Shown here one piece after another: positions 2-36,829 of a DNA stretch of 37,110 nt. The notes below the pieces were generated by a model. It made no database searches. It was given only the letters and a program-made list of their open reading frames with translations, and was not told the DNA's origin. The translations under genes were made by a program, and so were the position numbers. This DNA is from a bacterium (GTDB lineage Bacteria > Spirochaetota > UBA4802 > UBA5550). Numbering within the stretch: the first letter of the stretch is position 1; the number at the start of each line of letters is the position of its first letter. Location: NCBI GenBank assembly GCA_024224995.1, contig JAAENB010001175.1, positions 1-37,110 of the forward strand. Reading direction: 5' to 3'.

Positions 2-181
2 GAGGCCGACAGGTTTGCCGTAGAAACAACAAAAGAAGCCGATCCCATGGCAGACGCGTTAAAAAAATTATCGGTCGATAATCTTTCAAACCTGCAGCCC
101 CATCCCTTATTTGTATTTCTGAATTATTCTCATCCACCGGTATTGGAACGGTTAAAGGCTATTTATGAGATCAAAATTTAG
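2..181 (+). CDS. M48-family (Ste24/CAAX-type) zinc endopeptidase, 3' end only
   Basis: The window opens inside a plus-strand reading frame that runs 59 codons to a TAG at 179-181. The visible tail begins E-A-D-R-F-A and continues through K-L-S, N-L, P-H-P, F-V-F-L, Y-S-H-P-P and L-E-R-L-K-A-I. In Ste24-type M48 metallopeptidases the ExxD helix supplies the third zinc ligand, and the (H/Y)-S-H-P-P-x-x-x-R motif near the C-terminus is family-typical, so the fragment is the C-terminal end of such an integral membrane protease. The HExxH motif and the membrane segments lie outside the window. The gene converges on the PHP gene of the opposite strand and the two coding regions overlap by 30 bases (152-181). 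Family assignment is fairly secure; substrate is unknown. Confidence 0.8.
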   Translation, partial: EADRFAVETTKEADPMADALKKLSVDNLSNLQPHPLFVFLNYSHPPVLERLKAIYEIKI

Positions 182-1048
182 CACTATATTCTTAATAGTT
201 TCCTCAGTGCCATGACTATCAACGGAACCTAACGATATTGAGGGCTTGTTTTTACCATGAAAATCACTCCCACAGGTAAATCCAAGCCCATACTCTTTTG
301 CGATATTAAAATAAAACGTAGTATCGGCAGCGCTATGATAGCTGCTAAAAACCTCAATCCCCGCAATTCCCCTGCTGATAATACCCGGTAAGAGATCTTC
401 ATTTTCTTTTAAAGACTCTCCCGGATGAGCGATAACCGGAATTCCACCACTTTGCTTTACCATCGCAATTGCTTCATCCAGGTTGATATAGGTCTTCTCA
501 ATGTACGCCGGCTTATTCTTAGTAAAATAATCTCGATAAAAATTCAGGAAGGGCATATCGCTTCTGTCCCCGCCTGCCCGGTACGGAGCCAGCCTTTCAT
601 TGGCAAAATTTTCCTCTTTTGCCAGCAGGACTTCAGCAACCAGTTCAGGCGAGGGGATTTGATCCCCTGCCGCATCAAAAACCTCTTTTTCGCTTACGGC
701 AAAACCACTTTTCTGCAATGCTCGTATTGATTTTGGAATTGCCTCTTTTTCCTGCGCAAGACATTGCCTTTCCAGTTCAATAAAAGAAAAATCATTTATC
801 TCGATATTATAGCCCAATACATGAAGGTTTATTTCATTATAAACACAATCAATCTCTATTCCCGGAACTACTGTTACCCCGGCCTCCGCGCTCAGCGCAA
901 CAGCCTCCGCTGCTCCCCGGATACTGTTATGGTCGGTAATTGAAATTACTTCTATTTTCTCTTGCTTACTCAGCACGATGATTTCAGCCGCAGACAGCTC
1001 GCCATCAAGACTGACATTTGAATGAATATGTAGATCAATTGTACTCAT
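152..1048 (-). CDS. PHP-domain metal-dependent phosphoesterase
   Basis: A 298-residue protein with the four PHP motifs in order: D-L-H-I-H-S near residue 5, I-T-D-H-N near 38, G-I-E-I-D near 63, and late A-H-P-G-E and G-S-D-F-H-G. These build a multi-metal phosphoesterase site like that of the YciV/RNase AM (TrpH) group, which hydrolyses nucleoside 3',5'-bisphosphates or short RNA 5' ends. Length matches that group. It is the last gene of the ten-gene minus-strand run, 24 bases after the GH35-like gene. The ATG at 1048 is preceded by a G-rich stretch (GGGGGTG) rather than a classical ribosome site. It could be housekeeping, or act on a phosphorylated intermediate of the cluster; the sequence does not decide. 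Confidence 0.85.
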   Translation of the reverse strand: MSTIDLHIHSNVSLDGELSAAEIIVLSKQEKIEVISITDHNSIRGAAEAVALSAEAGVTVVPGIEIDCVYNEINLHVLGYNIEINDFSFIELERQCLAQEKEAIPKSIRALQKSGFAVSEKEVFDAAGDQIPSPELVAEVLLAKEENFANERLAPYRAGGDRSDMPFLNFYRDYFTKNKPAYIEKTYINLDEAIAMVKQSGGIPVIAHPGESLKENEDLLPGIISRGIAGIEVFSSYHSAADTTFYFNIAKEYGLGFTCGSDFHGKNKPSISLGSVDSHGTEETIKNIVLNFDLINSL

Positions 1049-1072
1049 GCGACACCCCCAAAAAAAATATTA

Positions 1073-3253
1073 TTAATTCGGTATATTTAAAACAGCATCA
1101 GCTGGGATAAGAACCCTCTCAATGTTCTCATTTTTTTTGATATATAAAACATCACCGGGCTGCTCATTTGTATATGCATGGTCATTTAACCATATTTCAA
1201 CAGTTTCAGATGAATTTTCATATTCATTTATTCCCTTAGCAAAATAGGCGGTTACCTCATTATTCTCGATCCGTATAATAGCTGCTGATTTCTCCGGCAG
1301 CCTGATCTTTACCGCATCATATCCCCCTGAGTTATTTTTTACCTGGAGAGCATGAGTCATGGCTTCTCCCGACCTGGAAAGAACAAACAAATGTCTAATA
1401 TCATTACAGTAATGACACCATGCTTGCGTTTCACTGCTTGTCGATATCACATCATAGTCATGAACAATCCTGTCAAGCAGATCAATAAAAACAGAAGATA
1501 CGTCATTGTTATTCTCAAACAGGTTACCCCCGATAAAACAAACTCTTTCCTTTTCTATATAAGAAAACAACTCATCTTTTAAAATAGTACAGGGGGTCAA
1601 TGTGTCGTTATACTCCGGAACTTCCCTTAACAAAATAAGTGTTCCTCCCTGTTTTACATACTCAAGCAGTTTTTTTTGCGACAGTTCATCCATAAAAAAA
1701 CCGCCAACCAGGGTAACAACGGGATTCTGCAATAATTCCTCAACACTGAGTGCTTGCAGATTAAGCAGGTTAAAATCATAGTTTCTGCTTCTCACTGTAT
1801 GTTGAAAAGCATCAAGGCCTTTTAATCCGCATCGGGGTGGATGGACGCCCAATTTTTCCCATTCTTTTTTATCGCTGCACCAGGACGCCAGGTATGAATA
1901 AGGTAGATATAATAAATATGATACTGCTTTTGTTGTTTTGGAATTAAGTATCTCTTCTCCGAATTCACGCAAATAAGAATTTAATAATTGTAGAACCCGG
2001 TATTTGTGTGTAACCTCCCCTTTTTCCGTTACGGGGCTGCAATCAGGATAGGGTTTTTCCTGAATAGTGTCAACATTATTATCCCAGCTTTCTGTTCTTA
2101 CTCCTGTATACACATTAAATCCCGTTGCTCCGTTCGCAACAGTAAGTATGGTTTGATAGCAGGGTATTACCGGGTATTTATACCGGGAATCATACATTTT
2201 TGAAAAACCCCAATTTTCTTCAAGGTTGGGCCCTCGTTTTCGTTTAATCAGTGTCAGGTAGCGGTTAAATGCCACATCATCATAAGAAACAGCTCCGGTC
2301 CAATTAGTGAACCCATAGTGTACATTATTCCAGATTTCGGGCTGCACTCTTGTGAGCCAATAATCAAGACCTTCTTCACCCGGTAAAGGCGCGTGCATAT
2401 TTACCAGGTACGGGATACCTGTTTTAATATAAGCCCCATACTCCTTATAAACAGCTTTCATAAAGTATGATTGATATTCAGACCAATCAAGATAAACAAG
2501 CACGCCACTCGGTTCTTCCGGCTGCTTCCATGCGCTGGGAGGTTGAATATCATCAAACGATTGATATTGTGCCGCGTGTAATTGATTATAGTTTGCTATT
2601 CTGATATATTTTTGCCTGAGCATTTCTCTGAATAAGTCCAGACTGCTTTTTGAATAATCATAGGCCAGGGGAGAAAGTTTTACATCGGAATATATCCCTT
2701 CATTGAATAATTGAACTGCCAGTATATTTCCTTCCGGGTAGTAATTAGGCCGTATTATTTCATTATCGATAGCACTGAACCATGTTTTTACCAGTGATTT
2801 AAAATTTTCATTCAGGGGAGCGGGGAGAGGATCGCTTGTATATCTCTTTTTATAATCGCAATCCAGCATATACTCTATATCTTTATTTTCATCGGGATTA
2901 ACCAGCGCCGGTAAGCCATCGTAAGTAACTTCCGCGTGTACAAAAGGACCGGGTTTAATTGAAAGGAACAATCCTAATTCACTACAGGTTCGAATAAAAG
3001 ATTTAACATCCCTGTTACCCTGTGTTCTGCCGTCAAAATCAAAAACAACATTTTCCTGTCCCTGGTGAGATACCAGGTGATGACGCCAGGGAATATAGCA
3101 GGTGATAATATCAATATGCGCCTCTTTTAATGTTATCAACCTGTCTTTCCAGTTCTCTTTTTTATCTCTATAGTAAGGATAATCCGCGGACAAAAAAAAT
3201 TTCTTTTGATTGTTGATATAATATATACCATTTTCAATTTTTATTTCTTTCAA
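1073..3253 (-). CDS. Glycoside hydrolase family 35-like protein (beta-galactosidase type)
   Basis: About 726 residues. The N-terminal half has the GH35 TIM-barrel landmarks: A-D-Y-P-Y-Y-R near residue 23, Y-I-P-W-R-H-H near 53, K-P-G-P-F-x-x-A-E near 100, and Q-L-F-N-E near 185, where N-E is the usual acid/base pair. A later G-P-N-L-E-E-N-W-G (about 342-350) is the best candidate for the nucleophile strand. The C-terminal half looks like a glutamine-amidotransferase-fold/trimerisation region plus beta domains. I start it at TTG 3253 because AAAGGAG lies 7 bases upstream; the longer GTG start at 3298 falls inside a palindromic repeat and has no ribosome site. No signal peptide is seen, so it is probably cytoplasmic. 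It may trim a glycosidic bond of the cluster product or precursor; substrate unknown. Confidence 0.75.
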   Translation of the reverse strand: MKEIKIENGIYYINNQKKFFLSADYPYYRDKKENWKDRLITLKEAHIDIITCYIPWRHHLVSHQGQENVVFDFDGRTQGNRDVKSFIRTCSELGLFLSIKPGPFVHAEVTYDGLPALVNPDENKDIEYMLDCDYKKRYTSDPLPAPLNENFKSLVKTWFSAIDNEIIRPNYYPEGNILAVQLFNEGIYSDVKLSPLAYDYSKSSLDLFREMLRQKYIRIANYNQLHAAQYQSFDDIQPPSAWKQPEEPSGVLVYLDWSEYQSYFMKAVYKEYGAYIKTGIPYLVNMHAPLPGEEGLDYWLTRVQPEIWNNVHYGFTNWTGAVSYDDVAFNRYLTLIKRKRGPNLEENWGFSKMYDSRYKYPVIPCYQTILTVANGATGFNVYTGVRTESWDNNVDTIQEKPYPDCSPVTEKGEVTHKYRVLQLLNSYLREFGEEILNSKTTKAVSYLLYLPYSYLASWCSDKKEWEKLGVHPPRCGLKGLDAFQHTVRSRNYDFNLLNLQALSVEELLQNPVVTLVGGFFMDELSQKKLLEYVKQGGTLILLREVPEYNDTLTPCTILKDELFSYIEKERVCFIGGNLFENNNDVSSVFIDLLDRIVHDYDVISTSSETQAWCHYCNDIRHLFVLSRSGEAMTHALQVKNNSGGYDAVKIRLPEKSAAIIRIENNEVTAYFAKGINEYENSSETVEIWLNDHAYTNEQPGDVLYIKKNENIERVLIPADAVLNIPN

Positions 3254-3280
3254 AAAATTACTCCTTTTATTATTTGTTCC

Positions 3281-3314
3281 CCTGTAGAGACACCGCACGC
3301 GGCGTCTCTACAGG
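3281..3314. repeat. 34-base palindromic intergenic repeat (GTAGAGAC type)
   Basis: Two 16-base arms (3281-3296 and 3299-3314) are inverted copies with a single mismatch around a 2-base loop; the outer arm reads CCTGTAGAGAC. Related AGACGTTGC/GCAACGTCT palindromes occur at 28071-28093 and 28221-28240, so this is one copy of a dispersed small palindrome family. It sits between the dehydrogenase stop and the GH35-like ribosome site, so it would form a strong hairpin within the operon mRNA. Confidence 0.85.
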
Positions 3315-3321
3315 CCGCAAT

Positions 3322-4365
3322 CTAATTCTCACCATTCGACAACAAGATTGTCTTCATGGAACTGATAGTGCTCCGTTCACCGGTCTCAAGATCGTAGCCC
3401 AGCAAATCTCTAAAAGCTTCTTTCCACTTATTTATGGGAAGTTTCTTCGTAATAAGCATTTCCAGGTCCGGAAAACTTTCAGCATACTCAAGCGCGGTTC
3501 CTGTCATTTGATGAACTTCACCGGTTCCAATAATACTGATGCCATTTGACAAAAAATGCATTGTATTAAAGGAAAAGTTATAGGTTTCATCAAAAGCCAA
3601 TGGAACGATCCGTCCGCCTTTTTCAATTAAGTTAACAGCAGTATCCAACTGGTTGCCCACGCTATCGAGTATTACGGTAAATTTTTTCCCGCCATTGATA
3701 CGCAAGATCTCTTCCTCGGTTAATTCATGAGGCAGATAAACATAGTCCGCGATTTTGTTCGCGATTTCTTTTCGATAGGGACTTATTTCCGTTGCCACCG
3801 TAAGCCGGGCAAGTCGTTTACTAACCATCTGGCATAACATTCCAATTGTACCGGAACCAAGAACCAATACCGAATCTACAGGTTTTACCCGGGCTTTTTC
3901 AAAAATGTTCATAATACAGGTAAGGGGTTCAACAAGAATAGCCGTTTCCCAACTCATCGCAGGCGGGATTTTATACATGAACCGTTCTTCACCAACATAA
4001 TAATCCGTATAGGTTCCATGAGCACCGATGCCAAGCTGAAAATCATCAAAGGTATCGCAAAAGCAGGTTAATCCTTTTCTGCAATAATCACATTTTCCGC
4101 AAAATTGAGTTGGATCAATAACAACACGGTCTCCAACAGAAAGATGCTGAACCCCATCCCCTGTTTCAACAACGGTTCCAACAGCCTCATGGCCAATAAC
4201 CATACCCGGGGTCGCGCTGATTTTTCCTTTTAAAATATTTAAATCCGTACCACAAACTCCGGTACCAAATATTTTAACTTTTACCTGGTCCCGTAACTCA
4301 ATTTGAGGTTCCATAATATCCTGTAATTCAAAAGTATTATTCTCCGTAAAAACAAGTGCTTCCAT
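3322..4365 (-). CDS. Zinc-dependent medium-chain dehydrogenase (polyol/threonine dehydrogenase-like)
   Basis: A 347-residue MDR protein. Catalytic zinc ligands are visible as C38 (G-V-C-G-T-D) and H59-E60 (G-H-E); the structural zinc lobe has C89, C92, C95 and C103. A G-S-G-T-I-G nucleotide loop near residue 170 indicates NAD(P). The family oxidises secondary alcohols of polyols, sugars, cyclitols or threonine to ketones. It follows the IMPase-like gene by about 12 bases and stands two genes after a class III aminotransferase, an arrangement that fits oxidation of a hydroxyl followed by transamination. I prefer the second ATG (4365) since AGGAGG is 5 bases upstream of it but only 2 from the first ATG (4368). 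Exact substrate unknown; cyclitol dehydrogenases of aminocyclitol pathways are plausible relatives. Confidence 0.85.
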   Translation of the reverse strand: MEALVFTENNTFELQDIMEPQIELRDQVKVKIFGTGVCGTDLNILKGKISATPGMVIGHEAVGTVVETGDGVQHLSVGDRVVIDPTQFCGKCDYCRKGLTCFCDTFDDFQLGIGAHGTYTDYYVGEERFMYKIPPAMSWETAILVEPLTCIMNIFEKARVKPVDSVLVLGSGTIGMLCQMVSKRLARLTVATEISPYRKEIANKIADYVYLPHELTEEEILRINGGKKFTVILDSVGNQLDTAVNLIEKGGRIVPLAFDETYNFSFNTMHFLSNGISIIGTGEVHQMTGTALEYAESFPDLEMLITKKLPINKWKEAFRDLLGYDLETGERSTISSMKTILLSNGEN

Positions 4366-4377
4366 CATATCCTCCTT

Positions 4378-5316
4378 CTATCTATCCCATTTTATACTAT
4401 TCAGGAGTTTTTGATGTAACTCCTTTGTTGAAGCAGCAATACATGATTGCTGGTTTTCATAGCTTAGATCCATTAGTAGTGTATCCTGTAATGAATTACC
4501 ATAGGCATCAGTAATTACAACGCCCGTTTTTTCGGCCAAAAAAACACTTGCCGCAATATCATAGGGAAACAGGTGCAGTACTTGTCCATTGCCTACCCGT
4601 TGAAAATCGGGCAGCAATTCAGGGGAGTCTTTTAACAGGCGGTTTCCAATATCCACATACGCGTCGAGCTGGCCGGTAATAATCCGTGAAATTGAATATG
4701 ATGCGCTGTTGAATATGAAAATACCTCCTGTATTCGCCGATGAATCTACTAAATGACCATACGCGCTGGTCATCATATGTGCCGGGTGACCATTAAACTC
4801 AATTGTCCAGAACATGTTCCGTATGTCTTTTGTGTCACTTAAGTTTGGCATCCTGTTTGTATACCCGTCATATACGAGATCATCACTATAAATATCCCCG
4901 TAAATATACGCGCCACTTTTTAATTCTTTTAACAGGGCAAACTCTATGTCTTTTATCCGGGCATCATCGGAAAAGCGAGCCATAGCTATGGAAATACAGG
5001 ACATTTCAAGACCGGCAGCAGCGGGCCGTGTACCGTCAATAGGATCAACAATTAATACATATTCGGGGTCATCTCCGATTATGTTTAATCCGCCATCTTC
5101 GGTATAAAACGCGACTGGTATATCTTTATCCGTAATATAATCCAGAACAGCTCGCTCTGCCACTTCATCGATGTTAAACTGAGCATCACCGCCGGGAGAA
5201 TACCCGTTTACCTGGCGGTTCTTTAACATTCCCCGGCAATCCGATATTTTTTGAAATACAAAATCTGCCAGATCAAGAATATATTGTTTTACATTTTGTT
5301 TTACACTACTATTCAT
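4378..5316 (-). CDS. Inositol monophosphatase / FBPase-superfamily phosphatase
   Basis: A 312-residue protein with the lithium-sensitive phosphatase signatures: G-Y-S-P-G-G-D-A-Q-F-N-I-D near 38-50, T-E-D-G-G near 72, the metal motif D-P-I-D-G-T at 91-96, and P-Y-D-I-A-A with E-K-T-G in the C-terminal part corresponding to the W-D-x-A-x-G motif. Such enzymes remove phosphate from inositol phosphates, fructose 1,6-bisphosphate or related sugar phosphates with Mg2+. Its start overlaps the stop of the aminotransferase gene (ATGA, 5313-5316), implying translational coupling. The first Glu of the usual S-E-E loop is kept (E73) and the second is Asp. In this context it most likely dephosphorylates the sugar or cyclitol intermediate that the dehydrogenase and aminotransferase act on; that is inference. 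Confidence 0.85.
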   Translation of the reverse strand: MNSSVKQNVKQYILDLADFVFQKISDCRGMLKNRQVNGYSPGGDAQFNIDEVAERAVLDYITDKDIPVAFYTEDGGLNIIGDDPEYVLIVDPIDGTRPAAAGLEMSCISIAMARFSDDARIKDIEFALLKELKSGAYIYGDIYSDDLVYDGYTNRMPNLSDTKDIRNMFWTIEFNGHPAHMMTSAYGHLVDSSANTGGIFIFNSASYSISRIITGQLDAYVDIGNRLLKDSPELLPDFQRVGNGQVLHLFPYDIAASVFLAEKTGVVITDAYGNSLQDTLLMDLSYENQQSCIAASTKELHQKLLNSIKWDR

Positions 5317-6566
5317 TTAATATCTCCTAAAACTTTTTCAAGTATATCACATAATTCTTCAGCCTCACTGACCGTAATGTTCAAGGGCGGGCGGATTTTA
5401 AATACATTTCCAAAACCATACCGTGATGTTCGGATAATCAATCCATAATCCATTGCTCTATTAGCCAGAAGATTGGTTAAGGCGACATCAGGCATCCCGT
5501 CCTCATCAATTAATTCAACACCGATCATGAGTCCTAAACCTCGAATATCCCCAATAAAAGAATATTTCTCCTGCATTTTATACAGACGATCCAGGATATA
5601 TTTACCGGATACTTTAACATTTTCCAGAAATCCTTCCTTTGTAATAATATCAAGCGTCACATTAGCGGCAGCCGCTGCCATAACATTCGCTCCAAAGGTA
5701 AAAGAATGATGATAGCCGTCCAGACCCACCAGTTTTGCTTCGGTTAAAATTGCTGCTACCTGGAACCCGGTACCGCCAAGCCCCTTTGCAACGGTAATAA
5801 TATTTGGATTAACATTAAATGAGTCGGCAGCAAACATTTCTCCTGTTCTGCCAAGACCGGTCTGGATTTCATCAAAAATCAAAAGAATACCTCTCTCATC
5901 ACACAATTTTTTCAATGCCTTGAAGTATCCTTTTGGAGGAATTATGTTTCCCCCGTTTCCTGAAACAGGCTCCACAATGAGGCATCCGACCTGCCCGTTA
6001 CTACCGTAATCAATAAAGTCATTAATCCTTTCAACACAGAGAAAATTGCAGGTTCCGTATTTTTGTTTATAAAAACATCGATAGCAATAGGGATCGGGAA
6101 CCTGGATACCTCCGGGGTAATTTCCCGCGAATGGTTCCTTGCGAAATGAGTTTCCCGAAAGGTTCATCATCATATATGACTGCCCCAGGTGGCTGCGAAA
6201 CAGTGAGATCACTCCACATTTCTTTGAATGGAATTGAGCTATTTTAATAGCGCCTTCATTCGCCACTGAACCTCCCGAAACTTTCAGGTGAACTTTTTGT
6301 ATATTGTCCGGACTAATCTCAATCAGCTTTTTAACCAGGTCATTAACCGGTTTTGTCTGAAAGCTGGAAGTTACATGGATCAATTCATCCGACTGTTTCT
6401 TTACCGCGTCAATAACTCTCTTATTACTGTACCCCAGGTTAAGATTAAACGTTGCCGACGCGCAGTCAATATATTTGTTTCCTTCAGAGTCATAGAGATA
6501 AATCCCTTCACCTCTCACGATCATCTTATCTTGCACGGAATAATAGATATGCTGTCTTGCATTCAT
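5313..6566 (-). CDS. Class III PLP-dependent aminotransferase
   Basis: A 417-residue fold-type I enzyme of the ornithine/GABA aminotransferase class. The phosphate cup (S-G-G-S-V-A-N-E, about 97-104), the PLP aspartate in I-F-D-E-I-Q-T-G-L-G-R-T-G (D232) and the Schiff-base lysine K261 (V-A-K-G-L-G) are present. A Cys-rich insertion at 161-177 (C-Y-R-C then C-N-F-L-C) resembles a feature of some family members acting on amino sugars or dialkylglycines. It transfers an amino group to a ketone or aldehyde, probably that made by the zinc dehydrogenase two genes downstream. ATG 6566 has GAGGAAA 6 bases ahead. Product identity (amino sugar, aminocyclitol or amino alcohol) cannot be read from sequence. 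Confidence 0.88.
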   Translation of the reverse strand: MNARQHIYYSVQDKMIVRGEGIYLYDSEGNKYIDCASATFNLNLGYSNKRVIDAVKKQSDELIHVTSSFQTKPVNDLVKKLIEISPDNIQKVHLKVSGGSVANEGAIKIAQFHSKKCGVISLFRSHLGQSYMMMNLSGNSFRKEPFAGNYPGGIQVPDPYCYRCFYKQKYGTCNFLCVERINDFIDYGSNGQVGCLIVEPVSGNGGNIIPPKGYFKALKKLCDERGILLIFDEIQTGLGRTGEMFAADSFNVNPNIITVAKGLGGTGFQVAAILTEAKLVGLDGYHHSFTFGANVMAAAAANVTLDIITKEGFLENVKVSGKYILDRLYKMQEKYSFIGDIRGLGLMIGVELIDEDGMPDVALTNLLANRAMDYGLIIRTSRYGFGNVFKIRPPLNITVSEAEELCDILEKVLGDIK

Positions 6567-6610
6567 TTTGTTTCCTCAATAAAATAAATTTTTTAAGTTA
6601 AGTACCCATA

Positions 6611-7411
6611 TCAGGATACTGCATTTTCTTTAAAGAACCGGATGGTCTCTTGCGCGACAATATTCTTTTGTTGATCAATGGGAATAATATGATAACTGTC
6701 ATCAAGAAAGACCTTACGTACTTTTTGTGATTTAATTTTTTTTTCTATGTAATTCGCGTTTTTAATACTTGCCGTATCATCCTCAAGAGCATGAAGAATT
6801 AACGTTGGAGTCTCAATACCGGGTATTGCTTTCTTTGTGGCCTTGATTAATTTTGAAACTTCATACATACTAACCATTGGCAAATCAAAAGAAGCAGCGG
6901 AACTTTGTTTGTTTTTATTATCCATAAAAGTCTGGAATTGAGTCCGTAATTCATCATTTTTAATTCCATAGGGATATTTTTCTTCAAAAGACATGAAGTG
7001 ACGAAAAGGGGGCAGGTACGCTAATGGAAGCAGCACCCGGTACCAGGGCAGATTCCAGCCATCATAAAAAAGGGTTGTAGACATAAGAGACAAGCCCGAG
7101 ACCTCAAGCTTTGTTGACATATATAAAGCCAGAAGAGCCCCCATGCATGAACCGGCGATAAATACGGAATCAGACTCCTGCTTCAGCTCATTATAACTCT
7201 TTTCTACTGTTGAACACCATTCTGTCCAGGTGGCTTTTTTTAACTCATCAACTGTTTTACCGTGTCCGTCAAGACAGGGAGCCAAAACGGTGAATCCCGC
7301 TTTATGAAGCTGCCCTGCGACGTATTTTAACTCAAATGGACTGCCGCCCAGTCCATGAATAAACAAAACTGCGTCTTTTCCGCTTTTGAGATTAATCGAA
7401 TATTCACTCAT
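6611..7411 (-). CDS. Alpha/beta-hydrolase with cysteine nucleophile (esterase/acyltransferase candidate)
   Basis: A 266-residue Est30/carboxylesterase-like fold: oxyanion motif F-I-H-G-L-G-G-S near 17-24, nucleophile elbow A-G-S-C-M-G-A (86-92), acid in L-E-D-D (211 or 212) and H241 in S-Y-H-I-I-P-I-D. Read against G-x-Nu-x-G, the nucleophile position is C89, not Ser; the codon is TGC at about 7145-7147. Cys at this place is known in dienelactone hydrolase and in PHA synthases, which transfer acyl groups through a thioester. Placed in an operon with FAAL and ACP, it is a candidate acyl transfer enzyme, though simple hydrolysis is equally possible. ATG 7411 has GGAGG 7 bases upstream and clears the preceding gene; a longer frame to 7546 would overlap it and has no ribosome site. 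Confidence 0.8.
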   Translation of the reverse strand: MSEYSINLKSGKDAVLFIHGLGGSPFELKYVAGQLHKAGFTVLAPCLDGHGKTVDELKKATWTEWCSTVEKSYNELKQESDSVFIAGSCMGALLALYMSTKLEVSGLSLMSTTLFYDGWNLPWYRVLLPLAYLPPFRHFMSFEEKYPYGIKNDELRTQFQTFMDNKNKQSSAASFDLPMVSMYEVSKLIKATKKAIPGIETPTLILHALEDDTASIKNANYIEKKIKSQKVRKVFLDDSYHIIPIDQQKNIVAQETIRFFKENAVS

Positions 7412-7452
7412 TGTATATCCTCCATCTATTATTTCTTTCATTAATCCTTTCA

Positions 7453-8445
7453 TTAATTCCTTAATCCGTGATTTAGGAAAATCCATTCGGGCATATTCTC
7501 CCCGGAAACTTCTTTGTGTATACCCGACCTTGTATAGGGATGACACACCCAGGGAATAGAATATTTTTTTAACCGTTCATCCTTGCATCCGCATACGGTC
7601 ATGGTAGCCCCGTACGTACCGCATATCTCCTGAAACATTTCCAGTTTTTCAACCTTTTGCTCAAAAGGAAAAGAGAAAAGAGACTCTTTCGTTGATACGG
7701 TTGGAGTCCTCTCCGATAAAGCCAGCATTGACTCATTAAGATATGAATTATTTTGCAAAGAATTCTTCATCTCATCAGAAAGAACCAGGTACCCGAGATT
7801 GGCTTCCGTAACACCAAGCGCGGTTACATCCTTGATTATTTTTTCAATATTTTCCGGTCTATCGTCAATCACCGGGAAAAGAGGATCGATCCGTACTACC
7901 AGTGATCCCAGGCCCTGTATTTTTTTCAACCTGCTAAAATTCCGGAGTCTTTCTTCATATGATGGAGCCCCGGGTTCAATAATATCATTTCTCTTTTTAT
8001 CTGAATTGGCTATCCCAATCTGGACTTCCATTAAATCGGGCCGTATCTTTATAACATCCAGCATTTCATTGGTGAAAACTCCCTTTGTAATAAAAAGTAT
8101 TTTCACATTATGTTCGAAGAGTTTTTTTAAAACAGCCATAGATGATTGAGCAGCCGCTTCATCCGCAAGGGGATCCGAAGCATAACACATATACACTACA
8201 GGAGGGAATTTTTCCTGTTCCATAAATTCATCCAGCTTTAAAGGCAGGACATCGCCTTTATAATCCGGATTGAAACGTTTATAAATCATTAGCTCCAGGG
8301 GAGAAAAAAGACAATAGATACAACGATGCGCGCATCCAAGCGAAACATCCATGGTGTACCCATTACAGGCATGTGGTTCATGCCGTACATTTGCCTGTAA
8401 ATCATGGCGAATGCCGTAATTTACTTTGTTCACTTTAAGTTTCAT
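7453..8445 (-). CDS. Radical SAM protein, spore-photoproduct-lyase-like
   Basis: A 330-residue radical SAM enzyme. The cluster motif is C38-A-H-R-C42-I-Y-C45, the standard CX3CX2C that binds the 4Fe-4S/SAM centre. The surrounding G-C-A-H-R-C-I-Y-C and the later Y-x-S-D-P and I-T-K-G stretches resemble the SplB/Rv2578c-like group rather than methylthiotransferases. A C-terminal pair C-G-C-K-D-E-R-L may hold another metal site or structural role. It lies in the FAAL operon between two alpha/beta hydrolases, 40 bases after one and 41 before the other. SplB-like proteins outside spore formers are mostly uncharacterised; a DNA-repair or a biosynthetic radical role cannot be separated here. ATG 8445 has AGGAAGG upstream. 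Confidence 0.8.
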   Translation of the reverse strand: MKLKVNKVNYGIRHDLQANVRHEPHACNGYTMDVSLGCAHRCIYCLFSPLELMIYKRFNPDYKGDVLPLKLDEFMEQEKFPPVVYMCYASDPLADEAAAQSSMAVLKKLFEHNVKILFITKGVFTNEMLDVIKIRPDLMEVQIGIANSDKKRNDIIEPGAPSYEERLRNFSRLKKIQGLGSLVVRIDPLFPVIDDRPENIEKIIKDVTALGVTEANLGYLVLSDEMKNSLQNNSYLNESMLALSERTPTVSTKESLFSFPFEQKVEKLEMFQEICGTYGATMTVCGCKDERLKKYSIPWVCHPYTRSGIHKEVSGENMPEWIFLNHGLRN

Positions 8446-8485
8446 TTAATAAACCTTCCTGTTAATAATATTTTTTTATATAGTA

Positions 8486-9331
8486 TTACTGCATTGTATG
8501 CGTAACCCAATTGCGAACAGTGTTAAGCACTTTCTTTCTCTCCGGCTCAACCTCATTCATTGTTTCATGCAAAAGTGATTCAAAAAGATATAATTTCTTG
8601 TCTTCCGAAATTACAGTATTGTATAAGAATTCACTTCCTCTATAGTGAGCCATAGGATCTTCTTTCCCGTGAAAAACCATGAGAGGTTTATTTATCCGTG
8701 GACTGTTTTTCATACAGTCTTTGCAGGTTTTGATAAGCTCTGTGTAAAACCGTACCGTAACCCTGTCATGAACAAGAGGATCTTGTATAAATTCGTCCAC
8801 AACAGACTTATCCTGTGATATGCCGGCAGGATCAATACCCGTTACAAGAGAAAACCGTGGAGCAACTGCGGATAAAAATGTTGCTACAGTTTTCTTCCAT
8901 AGAGGAACCCCGGAAGCAAAAATTAGAAAGGGCGCTGAAAGTATAAGATGAGAAATATCGTCCGGATAGGCCAGGGTATATTTTAAGGCCACCAGCGCTC
9001 CCATACTGTGAGCCAAAAAATAGCAGGGAAGTCCCGGTTTCTTTTGTTTCACGAAATCAATGAGAAGTTTAACATCAGAAACATAATCGCGAAATGAATT
9101 CACATGACCTCTTTTGCCACTCGATAAACCGTGGCCACGGTAGTCAAGAGCGTAAAACGATATATGCGCGTGGCTTAGCGCATTAACAATATTACTATAC
9201 CGCCCCGAATGTTCCCCATGGGCATGTAAAATAATAATTACCGCTTTTGGACTCGGCGAATCCCAGCTTCGAAAGTGTATTCGGACATTGTCGCCTTCAA
9301 GATAACCCGAATTTTTATGATACGATTCCAT
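8486..9331 (-). CDS. Monoacylglycerol lipase / lysophospholipase-like serine hydrolase
   Basis: A 281-residue Hydrolase_4 family protein. It has H-A-H-G-E-H-S-G-R-Y near residue 36, Y-R-G-H-G-x-S-x-G-K-R-G-H near 63-75, the nucleophile elbow A-H-S-M-G with Ser, an acid in H-G-K-E-D-P and a catalytic His in L-L-H-E-T-M-N-E. This is the usual monoglyceride lipase/lysophospholipase layout, acting on acyl esters of glycerol or lysophospholipids; no signal peptide is visible, so it is cytoplasmic. It starts 9 bases after the FAAL stop with AGGAGG ahead of the ATG, so it is co-expressed with the acyl-activation genes and may supply or remove the fatty acid. Confidence 0.85.
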   Translation of the reverse strand: MESYHKNSGYLEGDNVRIHFRSWDSPSPKAVIIILHAHGEHSGRYSNIVNALSHAHISFYALDYRGHGLSSGKRGHVNSFRDYVSDVKLLIDFVKQKKPGLPCYFLAHSMGALVALKYTLAYPDDISHLILSAPFLIFASGVPLWKKTVATFLSAVAPRFSLVTGIDPAGISQDKSVVDEFIQDPLVHDRVTVRFYTELIKTCKDCMKNSPRINKPLMVFHGKEDPMAHYRGSEFLYNTVISEDKKLYLFESLLHETMNEVEPERKKVLNTVRNWVTHTMQ

Positions 9332-9340
9332 AACAACCTC

Positions 9341-11098
9341 CTAGTTTGACATAAAATGAATATGTACAAATTCAAACTTGTTCAACAAAAAACTTTGTCT
9401 GCATGAACTGCGTTGAATTTTGCCGCTTGACGTTTTCAATATTGCGCCGGTATTAATCAATGCTATTGAATGCGTCTCCACCCTGAGATTCTTTAAAATA
9501 TTTTTGTAAATCGCTTCACAAATCTCATTCACGTTTTCCCGGTTATAATCTTTTTTTACCTCCTGGACGATTGCCAGTTGTTCTTCATTTTCAATTTCAA
9601 TTGAAAATGCGGCATTACACCCAAAACGCAGTTCCGGGTGGCTTTCTTCCGCTATCTTTTCAATATCATTTGGATAGTAGTTTTGCCCCCTTATTATAAT
9701 AAGATCCTTAACCCGGCCCGTTATGTATAATTCGTTGTTGTGAATAAACCCAAGGTCTCCGGTTTTGAGAAATGGCCCTTCAGCATTGGCCAGGTACGAC
9801 ATAAAAACTTTTTTTGTTTCTTCCGGTTTCTTCCAGTAGCCTTTTGCAACACTGCCGCTTTTTATCCGGATTTCACCTATTTCATTTTCTTTGCATTGTA
9901 TCCCGGTTTCCGGGTTTACAACAACAGTCTTCCCATCCCCCAGGAGATACCCGCAGGAAACAAGCCGTTTGCTGTTCTGTTCTTGAACAGGACTGGTTAC
10001 CCGGTTTGATTTTAAGGCCTCCGAATCTACTTCTTTTATTACCGGACTGCATTGCTTATCTCCTCCTGAGACGATCAATGTTCCCTCAGCCAAACCATAA
10101 CAGGGATATGTCGTTTCGGGTTGATAACCACAGCTTGAAAATGTTTTTGAAAACCGTTCAATTGTATCATGCCGTACCGGTTCGGCTCCGTTAAAAGCTA
10201 CCGACCAGGTGCTTAGATCCAGTTTTTCACGTTCCTCCGGAGTAATCTTGCGAGCACAAAGATCATAAGAAAAATTCGGCCCGCCGCTGGTAGTACCTTT
10301 GTATTCGGAAATTGTTTGAAGCCATCGATACGGTTTTTGAATAAAATCAAAATGAGAAAACAGTACCGCCGACAATCCTCCATACAGAGCCTGGAGTATA
10401 ACCCCAATAAGACCCATGTCGTGATATGGCGGTAGCCAGCTCACCAGGCGGCTTTGAAACGTATGCTGGAAATTATCATAGATCAACTTTTCATTATGCA
10501 AAAGATTACCATGAGAAACCATAACCCCTTTCGGGTTGGCGGTAGAGCCGGAAGTGTACTGCAAAAAGGCGATTGAATCACCGGTTAAGTCAATGTGCCG
10601 GTAATCACGTATCCCTGAATCTTCAATTGTGTCAGTTGGCAGCCACGTCAATTTTCCCAGATCCTCAAAATGCACATTAATTTTGGGATTGGATATTATA
10701 CTATTCATAATTGAATGAGTGGTTAAAACAATTTCTGCCTGAGAATCGGACGCAATTGTTTTAAGGCGAGGAGCCATTTTCACCGACAACGGCGGATACA
10801 GGGGAACAGCAATTACACCGGCAAACAGGCATCCCAGGAAAGCCGTAATGTACTCCAATCCCGGGGGGAAAAAAAGCAACGCACGCTGAGAAATACCCTG
10901 GTGCTCCTGTAAAAAAGAAGCAATAGCTAAAACCTTTTTATATAATTCTTCATACGTAAAAGTCTCTTCACTTCTTGTATTTCCGGAAAAATTCAAGAAG
11001 GTATATGCTTGTTTTGTGGGATGAATAGCAACACGATCATCTAACAACTCAATAAACGTACTATAGGTTTTACTTTTTTTAGATATATGTACAGGCAT
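9341..11098 (-). CDS. Fatty acyl-AMP ligase (FAAL)
   Basis: A 585-residue adenylate-forming enzyme. Motifs in order: V-P-L-Y-P-P (98-103), phosphate loop Y-T-S-G-S-T-A-N-P-K-G (181-191), W-L-P-P-Y-H-D-M-G-L-I-G (221-232), S-G-G-P-N-F-S-Y-D-L (271-280), Y-G-L-A-E-G-T (334-340), T-G-D-L-G-F, and the C-terminal S-S-G-K-I-Q-R with the catalytic lysine near 560. P-P-Y-H-D-M-G and G-G-P-N-F-S/A are diagnostic for FAALs as opposed to acyl-CoA ligases: they make acyl-adenylates and pass the acyl group to a carrier protein rather than CoA. The partner carrier is encoded 14 bases upstream. ATG 11098 has GGGGGAGG ahead. This is the clearest anchor for a lipid-type secondary pathway in the operon. Confidence 0.93.
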   Translation of the reverse strand: MPVHISKKSKTYSTFIELLDDRVAIHPTKQAYTFLNFSGNTRSEETFTYEELYKKVLAIASFLQEHQGISQRALLFFPPGLEYITAFLGCLFAGVIAVPLYPPLSVKMAPRLKTIASDSQAEIVLTTHSIMNSIISNPKINVHFEDLGKLTWLPTDTIEDSGIRDYRHIDLTGDSIAFLQYTSGSTANPKGVMVSHGNLLHNEKLIYDNFQHTFQSRLVSWLPPYHDMGLIGVILQALYGGLSAVLFSHFDFIQKPYRWLQTISEYKGTTSGGPNFSYDLCARKITPEEREKLDLSTWSVAFNGAEPVRHDTIERFSKTFSSCGYQPETTYPCYGLAEGTLIVSGGDKQCSPVIKEVDSEALKSNRVTSPVQEQNSKRLVSCGYLLGDGKTVVVNPETGIQCKENEIGEIRIKSGSVAKGYWKKPEETKKVFMSYLANAEGPFLKTGDLGFIHNNELYITGRVKDLIIIRGQNYYPNDIEKIAEESHPELRFGCNAAFSIEIENEEQLAIVQEVKKDYNRENVNEICEAIYKNILKNLRVETHSIALINTGAILKTSSGKIQRSSCRQSFLLNKFEFVHIHFMSN

Positions 11099-11112
11099 TG
11101 TTCCTCCCCCTT

Positions 11113-11376
11113 CTATGCGTTACTATACAACTCATTTGCTTGTATTTTATTATTCACCATCACCATTAAATTATTAAAGCTATCAATGCTGATCATATCT
11201 TCAAACTCAAAACTGATCTTAAACTGTTCTTCTATGGCATCAAAAATCTTTAATAATTTAATTGAGTCGATCTCGAAGACCTCATCACTCTCTTCAATAT
11301 GTTTTTTTTCAATACCGCATATTGTAGATACAATCTCCATAAGCTCATCCTTTATTGAAATACCATCAACATACAT
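11113..11376 (-). CDS. Acyl carrier protein
   Basis: An 87-residue acidic, helical protein with the phosphopantetheine site E-I-D-S-I-K-L-L-K-I; Ser38 would receive the 4'-phosphopantetheine arm. Length and the D-S-(I/L) motif match acyl or peptidyl carrier proteins. It is the first gene of the minus-strand run and immediately precedes the FAAL, whose acyl-AMP it presumably accepts. GGAGG stands 6 bases ahead of ATG 11376. This is probably a dedicated carrier rather than the housekeeping AcpP, since no fab gene is nearby and the typical D-S-L-D is D-S-I-K. Confidence 0.88.
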   Translation of the reverse strand: MYVDGISIKDELMEIVSTICGIEKKHIEESDEVFEIDSIKLLKIFDAIEEQFKISFEFEDMISIDSFNNLMVMVNNKIQANELYSNA

Positions 11377-11726
11377 ATTACGCCTCCAGCGATTCTATAT
11401 TTTAGCCGACACATAACAAGCCATTAGACCATGAGCCCGTTTGAGTCAGAACTATTCATAACAAAAGACCGCAATTGGCTTCAGACAAAACTTTTTCATA
11501 AAGGTGAAGGAACAATTCCGGTATTATTAATATTTATTGATGAAATAATAAATTGAGGATCAATTGAGTGGGAAAATAGATGCTTACGGATAAATTTTTT
11601 AACAGTTTTATTTTTCTGTTCACAAAAAGAAGAAAAATAAAACATAAATAGTACAATAATACAAATTCTGTAAATATTTATAAAAAAATATTGATTTTTT
11701 TACCATATTTACAATAACATGCACTA

Positions 11727-11823
11727 GATGGGTTGCGATAAATTTTCTTTAACACGGCAAATTAATTGATCCCATCACAACAGCTGCTTGTTCCAGCAAG
11801 TAGCTGTTGCTTATTTATTTTTT
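11727..11823 (+). ncRNA. Candidate small RNA ending in an intrinsic terminator
   Basis: GATGGG (11727-11732) can pair with CCCATC (11771-11776), and this closing helix is followed directly by a 13-bp terminator hairpin and a T-rich tail. A weak TTGATT/ATAACA box pair at 11691 and 11714 would place a start near 11725. Together they outline a transcript of about 100 nucleotides with no coding frame. This is structure-based inference only; I do not recognise a known RNA family or riboswitch. Confidence 0.3.
11778..11823 (+). terminator. Intrinsic terminator without an upstream gene
   Basis: Arms CAACAGCTGCTTG (11778-11790) and CAAGTAGCTGTTG (11797-11809) pair over 13 positions with one G-T pair around a 6-base loop, and are followed by TTATTTATTTTTT. 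The T-tract is on the plus strand only, so it would end a rightward transcript, yet no plus-strand gene precedes it. Confidence 0.7.
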
Positions 11824-11882
11824 CTTTGATAAATTTAAATGAATTTTATAGTATTAAATAAGTACTCCTTTCACTTCCGATT

Positions 11883-11902
11883 TTTTCCCTTTCCAGGGAA
11901 AA
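11883..11902. repeat. 8-bp perfect hairpin TTTTCCCT/AGGGAAAA
   Basis: TTTTCCCT and AGGGAAAA flank a 4-base loop. It has no T-tract and might be a protein-binding palindrome or part of a small RNA in this spacer. Confidence 0.45.
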
Positions 11903-11984
11903 TATTATTTAAAATAAAATATTTAAACTCTAATATAAAAACAGGTTAAATATGCCCATTCGGTTTTGTAAAGAAAAAAATATA

Positions 11985-12018
11985 AAAAGTACCGGTACAA
12001 TTATGTACCGGTTTTTTA
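11985..12018. terminator. Bidirectional intrinsic terminator
   Basis: ACCGGTAC (11991-11998) and GTACCGGT (12005-12012) form a perfect 8-bp stem with loop AATTAT, with an A-run on the left and TTTTTT on the right. It would end any rightward transcript coming out of the spacer before the VOC promoter. Confidence 0.7.
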
Positions 12019-12193
12019 AATCGATACCAAAAAAATCAAAATTCTACTTCGTGACACTGTTCATATAACAGAATATAGGTTATAAAATATAATTATCGAT
12101 CATTTTTTCTTCGAGTGACTACTCAGTTGTTGAATAAAAATCTTTCTTGACTTTTTAACTTGAACCGGGGATTTTATCGGGAGAGGTATACAA

Positions 12194-35984: not shown

Positions 35985-36425
35985 ATGAGTAATTTACAGA
36001 CTACATACTCAATGAAAGCATCCGAAATCGATAAGAAATGGGTGATTGTTGATGCTGAAGATAAGATACTGGGAAGACTTGCAACAGAAGTTGCCATGAT
36101 CCTGCGTGGGAAAAAGAAGCCGGGATATACTCCTCATCTCGATATGGGAGATTTTGTTGTTATTATTAACGCTGAAAAAGTTAAATTAACAGGAGCAAAA
36201 TCCCTGGATAAAGACTATTTTTCACACTCACAGTATCCTGGTGGAGAAAAGTTCACAAATATCCAAAAGATTATGAAAGAGAAGCCTGAATTTGTTATTG
36301 AACACGCGGTAAAAGGTATGCTGCCAAAAACCAGGCTTGGAAGACAAGTATTTAAAAATCTCAAGGTTTACGCCGGGACCGATCATCCTCACGCGGCACA
36401 AAAACCGGAAGCAATCGAGCTATAA
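35985..36425 (+). CDS. rplM: 50S ribosomal protein L13
   Basis: A 146-residue protein of standard length. Landmarks: [55 protein letters not shown] and Y-A-G-T-D-H-P-H. It assembles early into the large subunit. AAGGAAAAAGG lies upstream. Followed 14 bases later by rpsI, the universal bacterial order. Confidence 0.97.
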
Positions 36426-36439
36426 AAAGGAGAATATAA

Positions 36440-36829
36440 ATGGCAGAACAATATTACGCAACAGGAAGAAGAAAATCGTCAATAGCACGGGTATACCTTA
36501 AACCCGGTTCCGGAAATATTTATGTAAACAAACAGCCCATGACCGACTATTTTAGAAGAGAAACTCTTGGACTGGTTGTACGACAGCCTCTTGAGTACAT
36601 TGGGCAGCTTGAAAATTTTGATGTTTATGCCAATGTTTGCGGCGGCGGCTGGTCCGGTCAGGCCGGAGCAATGAAGCTTGGAATAGCCAGATGCCTTGTA
36701 CAGGTAGACGAAAAAAATAAAGCAACTCTTCGAAAAGGAGGGTTTCTAACCAGAGACTCAAGAAAAGTGGAACGAAAAAAGCCGGGTCAGAAAAAGGCAC
36801 GGAAGAAGTTTCAATTTTCAAAACGTTAA
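36440..36829 (+). CDS. rpsI: 30S ribosomal protein S9
   Basis: A 129-residue protein. It starts [14 protein letters not shown], contains [19 protein letters not shown] and ends with the basic [12 protein letters not shown] tail whose last residues reach the ribosomal P site. The end F-S-K-R and the W in the G-G-G-x-x-G-Q loop are normal family variation. AAAAGGAG lies ahead of ATG 36440. Confidence 0.97.

What the first reader, a model, noticed from the sequence alone, without database searches (positions are those of the whole stretch)
152..11376. Ten-gene FAAL/ACP operon that may build an unknown acylated amino-polyol
The gene set is seen directly: ACP, FAAL, two alpha/beta hydrolases, SPL-like radical SAM, class III aminotransferase, IMPase-like phosphatase, zinc polyol-type dehydrogenase, GH35-like glycosidase and PHP phosphoesterase, all on one strand with gaps of -4 to 68 bases. 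FAALs are known to load carrier proteins for lipopeptide or lipid biosynthesis. Phosphatase, dehydrogenase and aminotransferase side by side is the logic of amino sugar/aminocyclitol formation. No polyketide synthase, NRPS or recognised N-acyltransferase is present, so the way acyl and amine would be joined is not a known route. The product and the whole pathway are inference.
Basis: partly seen in the sequence, partly recalled or inferred. Interest (0 to 1): 0.75.

Follow-up and report, generated by a model that had tools for sequence, protein, structure and literature searches.

The report
Azasugar operon with fatty-acid loading module
The ten genes form an operon whose core is the known bacterial three-gene set for making azasugars (sugar look-alikes that block sugar-cutting enzymes), here joined to a fatty-acid activation module, so the bacterium may make a natural fat-tagged azasugar.

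Summary
The ten-gene, one-strand cluster is real: intact frames, gaps of -4 to 68 bases, and a ribosome-binding-like stretch before each gene.

Its centre is not an unknown aminocyclitol pathway. Aminotransferase, IMPase-like phosphatase and Zn-dehydrogenase match the published azasugar three-gene cluster (gabT1-yktC1-gutB1). They show the Bacillus gene order, about 70/74/58% identity to Bacillus loci, and the aminotransferase motif with deviations (PMC8382821).

The GH35-like gene also goes with this cluster: it lies near it in 27 of 59 genome loci (none of the nine Bacillus/Brevibacillus loci), both catalytic glutamates kept in 27 of 27.

Unusual is the front half: ACP, FAAL, two alpha/beta hydrolases and an SPL-fold radical SAM protein. 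It was found in 0 of 59 loci. One hydrolase has Cys for the nucleophilic Ser, which would fit acyl transfer from ACP.

Best reading: a lipidated nojirimycin-type azasugar. The azasugar core is well supported; the lipid link is inference from one contig. New variant of a known kind.

The parts
11113..11376 (-). acyl carrier protein, 87 aa, with the DSI motif (Asp37-Ser38) as predicted phosphopantetheine site
   Evidence: PF00550 E=3.7e-7; motif position
9341..11098 (-). fatty acyl-AMP ligase (FAAL), 585 aa
   Evidence: PF00501 and PF23024; FAAL subfamily models; near full-length matches to solved FAALs, e.g. 7r7g E=4.3e-163, 3kxw E=8.4e-138
8486..9331 (-). alpha/beta hydrolase 1, monoacylglycerol-lipase-like, nucleophile Ser in HSMG
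   Evidence: PF12146 E=8.3e-74; Mtb monoglyceride lipase 6eic E=3.4e-41; motif
7453..8445 (-). SPL-fold radical SAM protein, 330 aa, CxxxCxxC plus four further invariant Cys (275, 285, 287, 301)
6611..7411 (-). alpha/beta hydrolase 2 with Cys at the nucleophile position (GSCMG, Cys89), Asp211 and His241; candidate acyl-ACP acyltransferase
   Evidence: aligned on monoacylglycerol lipases with GLSMG; homologue alignment; start and residue positions
5313..6566 (-). class III aminotransferase, GabT1-type (azasugar signature)
   Evidence: 69.8% identity to the B. velezensis protein of L004; motif SGNSFRKEPFAGNYPGGIQVPDPYCYRC
4378..5316 (-). IMPase-family phosphatase, YktC1-type
   Evidence: 73-75% identity in the Bacillus loci L001-L008; nests in a Bacillota clade
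3322..4368 (-). zinc-dependent aminopolyol dehydrogenase, GutB1-type
   Evidence: 57-59% in Bacillus and Brevibacillus loci, 65% in Anaerobacterium L013
1073..3253 (-). GH35/GLMA-like glycosidase or transglycosidase, catalytic Glu200 and Glu360 (numbered in the 741-aa frame 1073-3298)
   Evidence: PF01301, PF22369; IaSGT 7vkw E=7.5e-34; both Glu kept in 27 of 27 cluster-linked homologues
152..1048 (-). PHP-domain phosphoesterase
   Evidence: PF02811; 46% homologue directly after GH35 in L014, the only one of 59 loci with a PHP hit
11377..12193 (.). upstream region of the operon with a 22-base inverted repeat (9-base arms, 4-base loop) at 11991-12012; possible control site
   Evidence: sequence and scan; no Rfam match at gathering threshold in the window

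Best explanation
The operon is an azasugar biosynthesis operon extended by a fatty-acid activation module. Core steps, by homology to the published pathway: the GabT1-type enzyme aminates C2 of fructose-6-phosphate; the YktC1-type phosphatase frees 2-amino-2-deoxy-mannitol; the GutB1-type dehydrogenase oxidises C6; the ring closes to a nojirimycin-type azasugar. Added steps, inferred: FAAL adenylates a fatty acid and loads it on the ACP, and the Cys-nucleophile hydrolase ABH2 (perhaps with ABH1) moves the acyl group onto the amine or a hydroxyl of the aminopolyol or azasugar, giving a lipidated azasugar. The SPL-fold radical SAM enzyme modifies the acyl chain or the ring. The GH35-like enzyme adds, removes or tolerates a beta-glucosyl group on the azasugar, and PHP is a phosphoesterase of the azasugar branch. 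Shown here: gene identities, layout, membership of the three-gene cluster by sequence, recurrence of GH35. Inferred: all substrates, the acyl transfer, and that both halves serve one product.
For: Trio identity and order match the published azasugar cluster, and the aminotransferase motif matches with deviations (PMC8382821, parts 1-4 of 5 read). The phosphatase tree puts the window in a clade of 14 rows, the other 13 all Bacillota, 98/89. GH35 near the cluster in 27 of 59 loci, both Glu kept in 27 of 27; PHP after GH35 in L014. The E343G mutant of the nearest solved GH35 (IaSGT) was crystallised with deoxynojirimycin at subsites -1 and +1 (PMC8861115 passages). Acyl and azasugar halves are on one strand with a 44-base junction, similar to the 40- and 41-base gaps inside the acyl half; the scans list no promoter- or terminator-like site in it (promoter counts equal those of shuffles, so this is weak). 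FAAL and ACP are adjacent, as is usual for stand-alone FAALs (PMC11837247 passages). ABH2 has Cys where the matched lipases have Ser, with Asp and His kept.
Against: The joint layout is seen in one contig only: 0 of 59 azasugar loci have the FAAL/ACP/radical SAM half. Apart from the window's own contig, no listed radical SAM homologue shares a contig length with a listed phosphatase or GH35 homologue, except one 2204-base length too short to hold both genes (compared by eye; longest contigs only, best 120 rows for two of the three lists). The nine Bacillus/Brevibacillus loci, which hold the closest trios, lack GH35, PHP and the acyl half. An amine acylated early would hinder ring closure. Cys at the nucleophile position is in 2 of 5 homologues looked at, Ser in 3 of 5. 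No exporter is in the held part of the operon, unlike L013 and L014. No product data exist.
Confidence: 0.5

Rival explanations
1. Two independent operons lie head to tail: an azasugar operon (aminotransferase to PHP) and an unrelated lipid operon (ACP to ABH2) that happen to be adjacent, perhaps co-transcribed but with separate products.
For: The azasugar genes occur without the acyl half in all 59 loci, and the radical SAM family occurs elsewhere without a visible azasugar cluster.
Against: The 44-base junction is about as tight as gaps inside the acyl half; no terminator-like hairpin is listed in the junction.
Confidence: 0.27
2. The acyl group is a temporary handle: the aminopolyol is acylated from ACP, modified by dehydrogenase or radical SAM enzyme, and released by the second hydrolase, so the end product is a free azasugar.
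For: Two alpha/beta hydrolases are present, one with Ser and one with Cys at the nucleophile position, which could be one on, one off.
Against: The published Bacillus pathway has no acyl step (PMC8382821); no direct evidence here.
Confidence: 0.12
3. One reading: an aminocyclitol or amino sugar acylated by an unknown route.
For: The Zn-dehydrogenase shows weak similarity to scyllo-inosose 3-dehydrogenase IolM (129 bits, cut-off 450; threonine dehydrogenase scores 136.6).
Against: The trio is far closer to the gabT1-yktC1-gutB1 loci, with the azasugar aminotransferase motif. PMC8382821 states that ValM of the validamycin pathway falls in the same 40% aminotransferase cluster, but its neighbouring dehydrogenase is only 23% similar and a phosphatase is lacking.
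Confidence: 0.05

Closest known systems
gabT1-yktC1-gutB1 azasugar three-gene cluster of Bacillus velezensis FZB42 and relatives (PMC8382821)
   Same: Same three enzyme families and gene order; 69-70%, 73-75% and 57-59% identity in the Bacillus loci L001-L008; aminotransferase motif
   Different: Window adds ACP, FAAL, two hydrolases, radical SAM protein, GH35 and PHP in one operon and lacks the MFS exporter gene in the held part
Azasugar clusters with a GH35 neighbour: L013 Anaerobacterium, L014 Anaeromicropila, L012 Archangium and actinomycete loci
   Same: AT-phosphatase-DH followed by GH35 (with PHP in L014)
   Different: None has the FAAL/ACP/radical SAM half; L013 has an MFS and L014 a MATE exporter
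Stand-alone FAAL plus ACP systems (jamaicamide JamA/JamB, cylindrocyclophane; PMC11837247 passages)
   Same: FAAL next to its presumed ACP
   Different: Those feed PKS machinery; none is seen here. The review's main text holds 0 occurrences of azasugar, iminosugar, amino sugar or radical SAM
IaSGT beta-1,2-glucosyltransferase (GH35, PMC8861115 passages)
   Same: Aligned over residues 26-577 with both catalytic Glu and Asn before the acid/base
   Different: Weak similarity (E=7.5e-34); different gene context; substrate unknown
Spore photoproduct lyase
   Different: 12-14% identity; different gene context; no DNA repair role implied

Membership tests
Bacterial azasugar three-gene cluster (3GC) | Adjacent class III aminotransferase (PF00202), phosphatase (PF00459 or HAD) and Zn-dehydrogenase (PF08240/PF00107) | tested here: met
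Bacterial azasugar three-gene cluster (3GC) | Aminotransferase consensus SGNXFRXXXFPNXXXXXXXLXVPXPYCXRC | tested here: met
   Met with deviations: window SGNSFRKEPFAGNYPGGIQVPDPYCYRC keeps both ends; FAG for FPN and I for L; same length as the B. velezensis form, two residues shorter than the printed consensus. 35 of the 59 loci match my loose form of the motif, so it is not universal
Bacterial azasugar three-gene cluster (3GC) | Bacilli-type order aminotransferase, phosphatase, dehydrogenase with inositol-phosphatase-family phosphatase | tested here: met
Bacterial azasugar three-gene cluster (3GC) | Production of an azasugar | not testable with these tools
   needs expression and LC-MS
Fatty acyl-AMP ligase (FAAL) | AMP-binding fold with FAAL-type C-terminal domain and near full-length match to solved FAALs | tested here: met
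   PF00501, PF23024; FAAL models; 7r7g, 3kxw, FadD23/28/32 matches
Fatty acyl-AMP ligase (FAAL) | Loads acyl onto holo-ACP and rejects CoA | not testable with these tools
   enzyme assay
GH35 glycoside hydrolase | Two catalytic Glu at the GH35 positions | tested here: met
   Glu200 and Glu360 align with E176 and E343 of IaSGT
Spore photoproduct lyase | SPL fold and radical SAM CxxxCxxC | tested here: met
Spore photoproduct lyase | Repairs spore photoproduct DNA | not testable with these tools
   12-14% identity and biosynthetic context make it unlikely
Aminocyclitol pathway | Trio closest to enzymes of a cyclitol pathway | tested here: not met
   closest matches seen are the azasugar-type proteins and loci

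The most novel reading that the evidence does not exclude
A bacterium makes, by a dedicated ten-gene operon, a natural lipidated azasugar (an acylated or alkylated nojirimycin, the natural counterpart of synthetic N-alkyl iminosugar drugs), with acyl transfer from a FAAL-loaded ACP by a Cys-nucleophile alpha/beta hydrolase and an SPL-fold radical SAM tailoring step.
Probability: 0.42. Interest if true: 0.75.

Novelty: new variant of a known kind. Interest (0 to 1): 0.56.

Why it matters
Azasugars are lead compounds for diabetes, lysosomal storage disease and antivirals, and chemists attach alkyl chains to them to improve them. A bacterial operon that may attach a fatty chain would give enzymes for that step and a natural setting for lipid azasugars. 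The recurring GH35 neighbour gives a genome-mining handle for azasugar clusters and a candidate self-protection or glucosylation enzyme.

Tried and rejected
Aminocyclitol reading: rejected because the trio is much closer to azasugar enzymes. DNA-repair role for the radical SAM protein: the fold is SPL but identity is 12-14% and the context is biosynthetic. Viral or plasmid origin: no radical SAM relative in viral contigs; one weak plasmid match each for phosphatase and radical SAM. RNA element: no Rfam match at gathering threshold. No solved structure matched the radical SAM profile by sequence.

Search for the acyl half elsewhere: the radical SAM protein gave only weak matches in 5 of 9 genomes of my loci (best E 7.3e-10, 28%), and at E <= 1e-40 none in 398 and 249 phylum genomes (overlapping draws). 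P0266, a homologue named for C. beijerinckii, gave none in 206 genomes of the family of G565, a genome picked by a Clostridium 16S probe pattern (0 of 249, 7 of 391). These negatives are weak: no held genome was known to carry the query.

Placing the organism failed: ribosomal protein L13 is at most 63% identical among the 17 of 396 phylum genomes listed at E <= 1e-54 and 48-61% in 14 genomes of several phyla. Two of 1434 plasmid records with a FAAL hit were inspected and show other contexts.

Limits: of the 59 loci, 44 hold the full 10 kb upstream of the phosphatase and 15 are cut by contig ends; FAAL hits in L010 and L015 are NRPS adenylation domains; weak FAAL hits in L022 and L028 were not followed; tblastn with an 87-aa ACP is insensitive. 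The tree flags seven Bacillota rows (and L059) for unusual letter make-up.

Literature searches for a lipid azasugar cluster, a FAAL with azasugars or a glycosidase with the cluster: in open-licence papers only, several with capped lists; none of the listed papers appears to describe one, judged from titles and abstract starts. PMC8382821: parts 1-4 of 5 read; PMC8466323, PMC11837247 and PMC8861115: passages only. The gene names gabT1/yktC1/gutB1 were first recalled, then found in these papers. PHA synthase as a Cys-nucleophile example is recalled.
Full report
Observation. Ten intact genes run on the minus strand from 11376 down to 152, with gaps of 14, 9, 40, 41, 44, -4, 9, 68 and 24 bases and a purine-rich, Shine-Dalgarno-like stretch before each, weakest before PHP. 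I place the second hydrolase start at 7411 and the GH35 start at 3253. The contig ends 151 bases after the last gene, so further genes may be missing. No whole genome is held for the window.

The core is known. The IMPase-like protein is about 73-75% identical to proteins of Bacillus subtilis-group species. A genome scan with an alignment of 24 sequences, window included, gave 59 loci. In the Bacillus loci L001-L008 the aminotransferase, phosphatase and dehydrogenase lie in the same order, at 69-70%, 73-75% and 57-59% identity to the window. This is the three-gene cluster that Beal and Horenstein describe as the hallmark of bacterial azasugar biosynthesis (PMC8382821; parts 1-4 of 5 read). The pathway there is C2 amination of fructose-6-phosphate, dephosphorylation, C6 oxidation and ring closure, with a consensus motif in the aminotransferase. 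The window aminotransferase reads SGNSFRKEPFAGNYPGGIQVPDPYCYRC against SGNSFRKEPFPPQISFGLQVPDPYCSRC in the B. velezensis locus L004. It departs from the printed consensus at the FPN and L positions and in spacing. A phosphatase tree (58 rows, several with flagged letter make-up) puts the window in a clade of 14 rows, the other 13 all Bacillota, with support 98/89.

GH35 and PHP go with the azasugar half. A GH35-like hit lies in 27 of the 59 loci, though in none of the nine Bacillus/Brevibacillus loci L001-L009, and Pfam finds GH35 in 7 of 7 proteins that I tested. The two catalytic glutamates, Glu200 and Glu360 in the 741-aa frame, are kept in 27 of 27. They align with E176 and E343 of the GH35 beta-1,2-glucosyltransferase IaSGT. 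PMC8861115 (passages) gives these as acid/base and nucleophile, and reports deoxynojirimycin bound in the E343G mutant. In Anaeromicropila (L014) the order is AT, phosphatase, DH, MATE exporter, GH35, PHP, the window's order but for the exporter; L014 is the only one of the 59 loci with a PHP hit. I saw no mention of such a glycosidase in the parts and passages of PMC8382821 and PMC8466323 that I read.

The acyl half is what is new. ACP and FAAL are adjacent; the FAAL matches solved FAALs over nearly its full length. Hydrolase 1 resembles monoacylglycerol lipases. Hydrolase 2 resembles another lipase group, but the nucleophile Ser is Cys89 here (GSCMG), with Asp211 and His241 kept. Among five plasmid homologues examined, two have Cys and three Ser. 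A Cys nucleophile suits thioester acyl transfer, as I recall for PHA synthases; this is inference. The radical SAM protein has 100 matches at E <= 1e-15, itself included, among 1694 candidates in a 5.8-billion-protein collection; 24 of them were aligned with it, showing an invariant CxxxCxxC and four more invariant Cys. Its model folds like spore photoproduct lyase.

Linkage of the halves. For: one strand, a 44-base junction like the 40- and 41-base gaps before it, no promoter- or terminator-like site listed in it. Against: none of the 59 azasugar loci has the acyl half (44 with the full upstream 10 kb), and I did not find the radical SAM gene in the genomes sampled. So the joined layout rests on one contig.

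Mechanism. Most likely the azasugar core makes an aminopolyol or nojirimycin-type ring, FAAL/ACP supply a fatty acyl thioester, and a hydrolase-fold enzyme joins them. The radical SAM enzyme tailors the chain or ring, GH35 handles a glucosyl group or protects the producer, and PHP acts on a phosphoester. I give about 0.9 to the azasugar core and about 0.5 to a lipidated product. N-acylation before ring closure would hinder closure, so O-acylation or later N-acylation is chemically easier; this is inference.

Novelty. The trio is a new member of a known family; the FAAL/ACP extension makes it a new variant. Literature searches listed no paper that appears, from title and abstract start, to describe an azasugar cluster with a FAAL; only open-licence papers were searched and several lists were capped. 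The FAAL review PMC11837247 holds 0 occurrences of azasugar or iminosugar in its main text.

Noticed in passing
27 of the loci L012-L058: GH35-like enzyme with NEG and E-x-NW motifs sits near the azasugar cluster in 27 of 59 loci, in Bacillota, Actinomycetota, Myxococcota, Cyanobacteriota and Pseudomonadota; both catalytic Glu kept in 27 of 27.
   Followed up: partly
L010:951-10918; L015:129-8052: Azasugar-type aminotransferase and phosphatase follow a two-module NRPS; L010 also has a 3-dehydroquinate synthase II and a DeoC-family aldolase, and no dehydrogenase hit is seen in either locus (L015 is cut short): perhaps a peptidyl relative of the pathway.
   Followed up: partly
L073 and L074 (Agrobacterium plasmids): Cys-nucleophile homologue of hydrolase 2 lies in a gene row with a class III aminotransferase (26-27% to the window's), HAD phosphatase, arginase-family protein, GNAT acyltransferase and small transporters: another possible amine-acylating pathway.
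   Followed up: partly
window 11991-12012: 22-base inverted repeat with 9-base arms in the 817-base region upstream of the operon; could be an operator.
   Followed up: no
window 11778-11809: Strong terminator-like hairpin (14 pairs) on the + strand inside the same region.
   Followed up: no
window 35985-36829: Ribosomal proteins L13 and S9 place the contig on a chromosome, but the best L13 match listed in 396 Bacillota-phylum genomes is 63%; the host lineage is unplaced while its azasugar phosphatase is Bacillota-like.
   Followed up: partly
L059: A MAG labelled Diapherotrites archaeon carries a 41% phosphatase and a 33% aminotransferase homologue side by side; distant relative or misbinned contig.
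   Followed up: no
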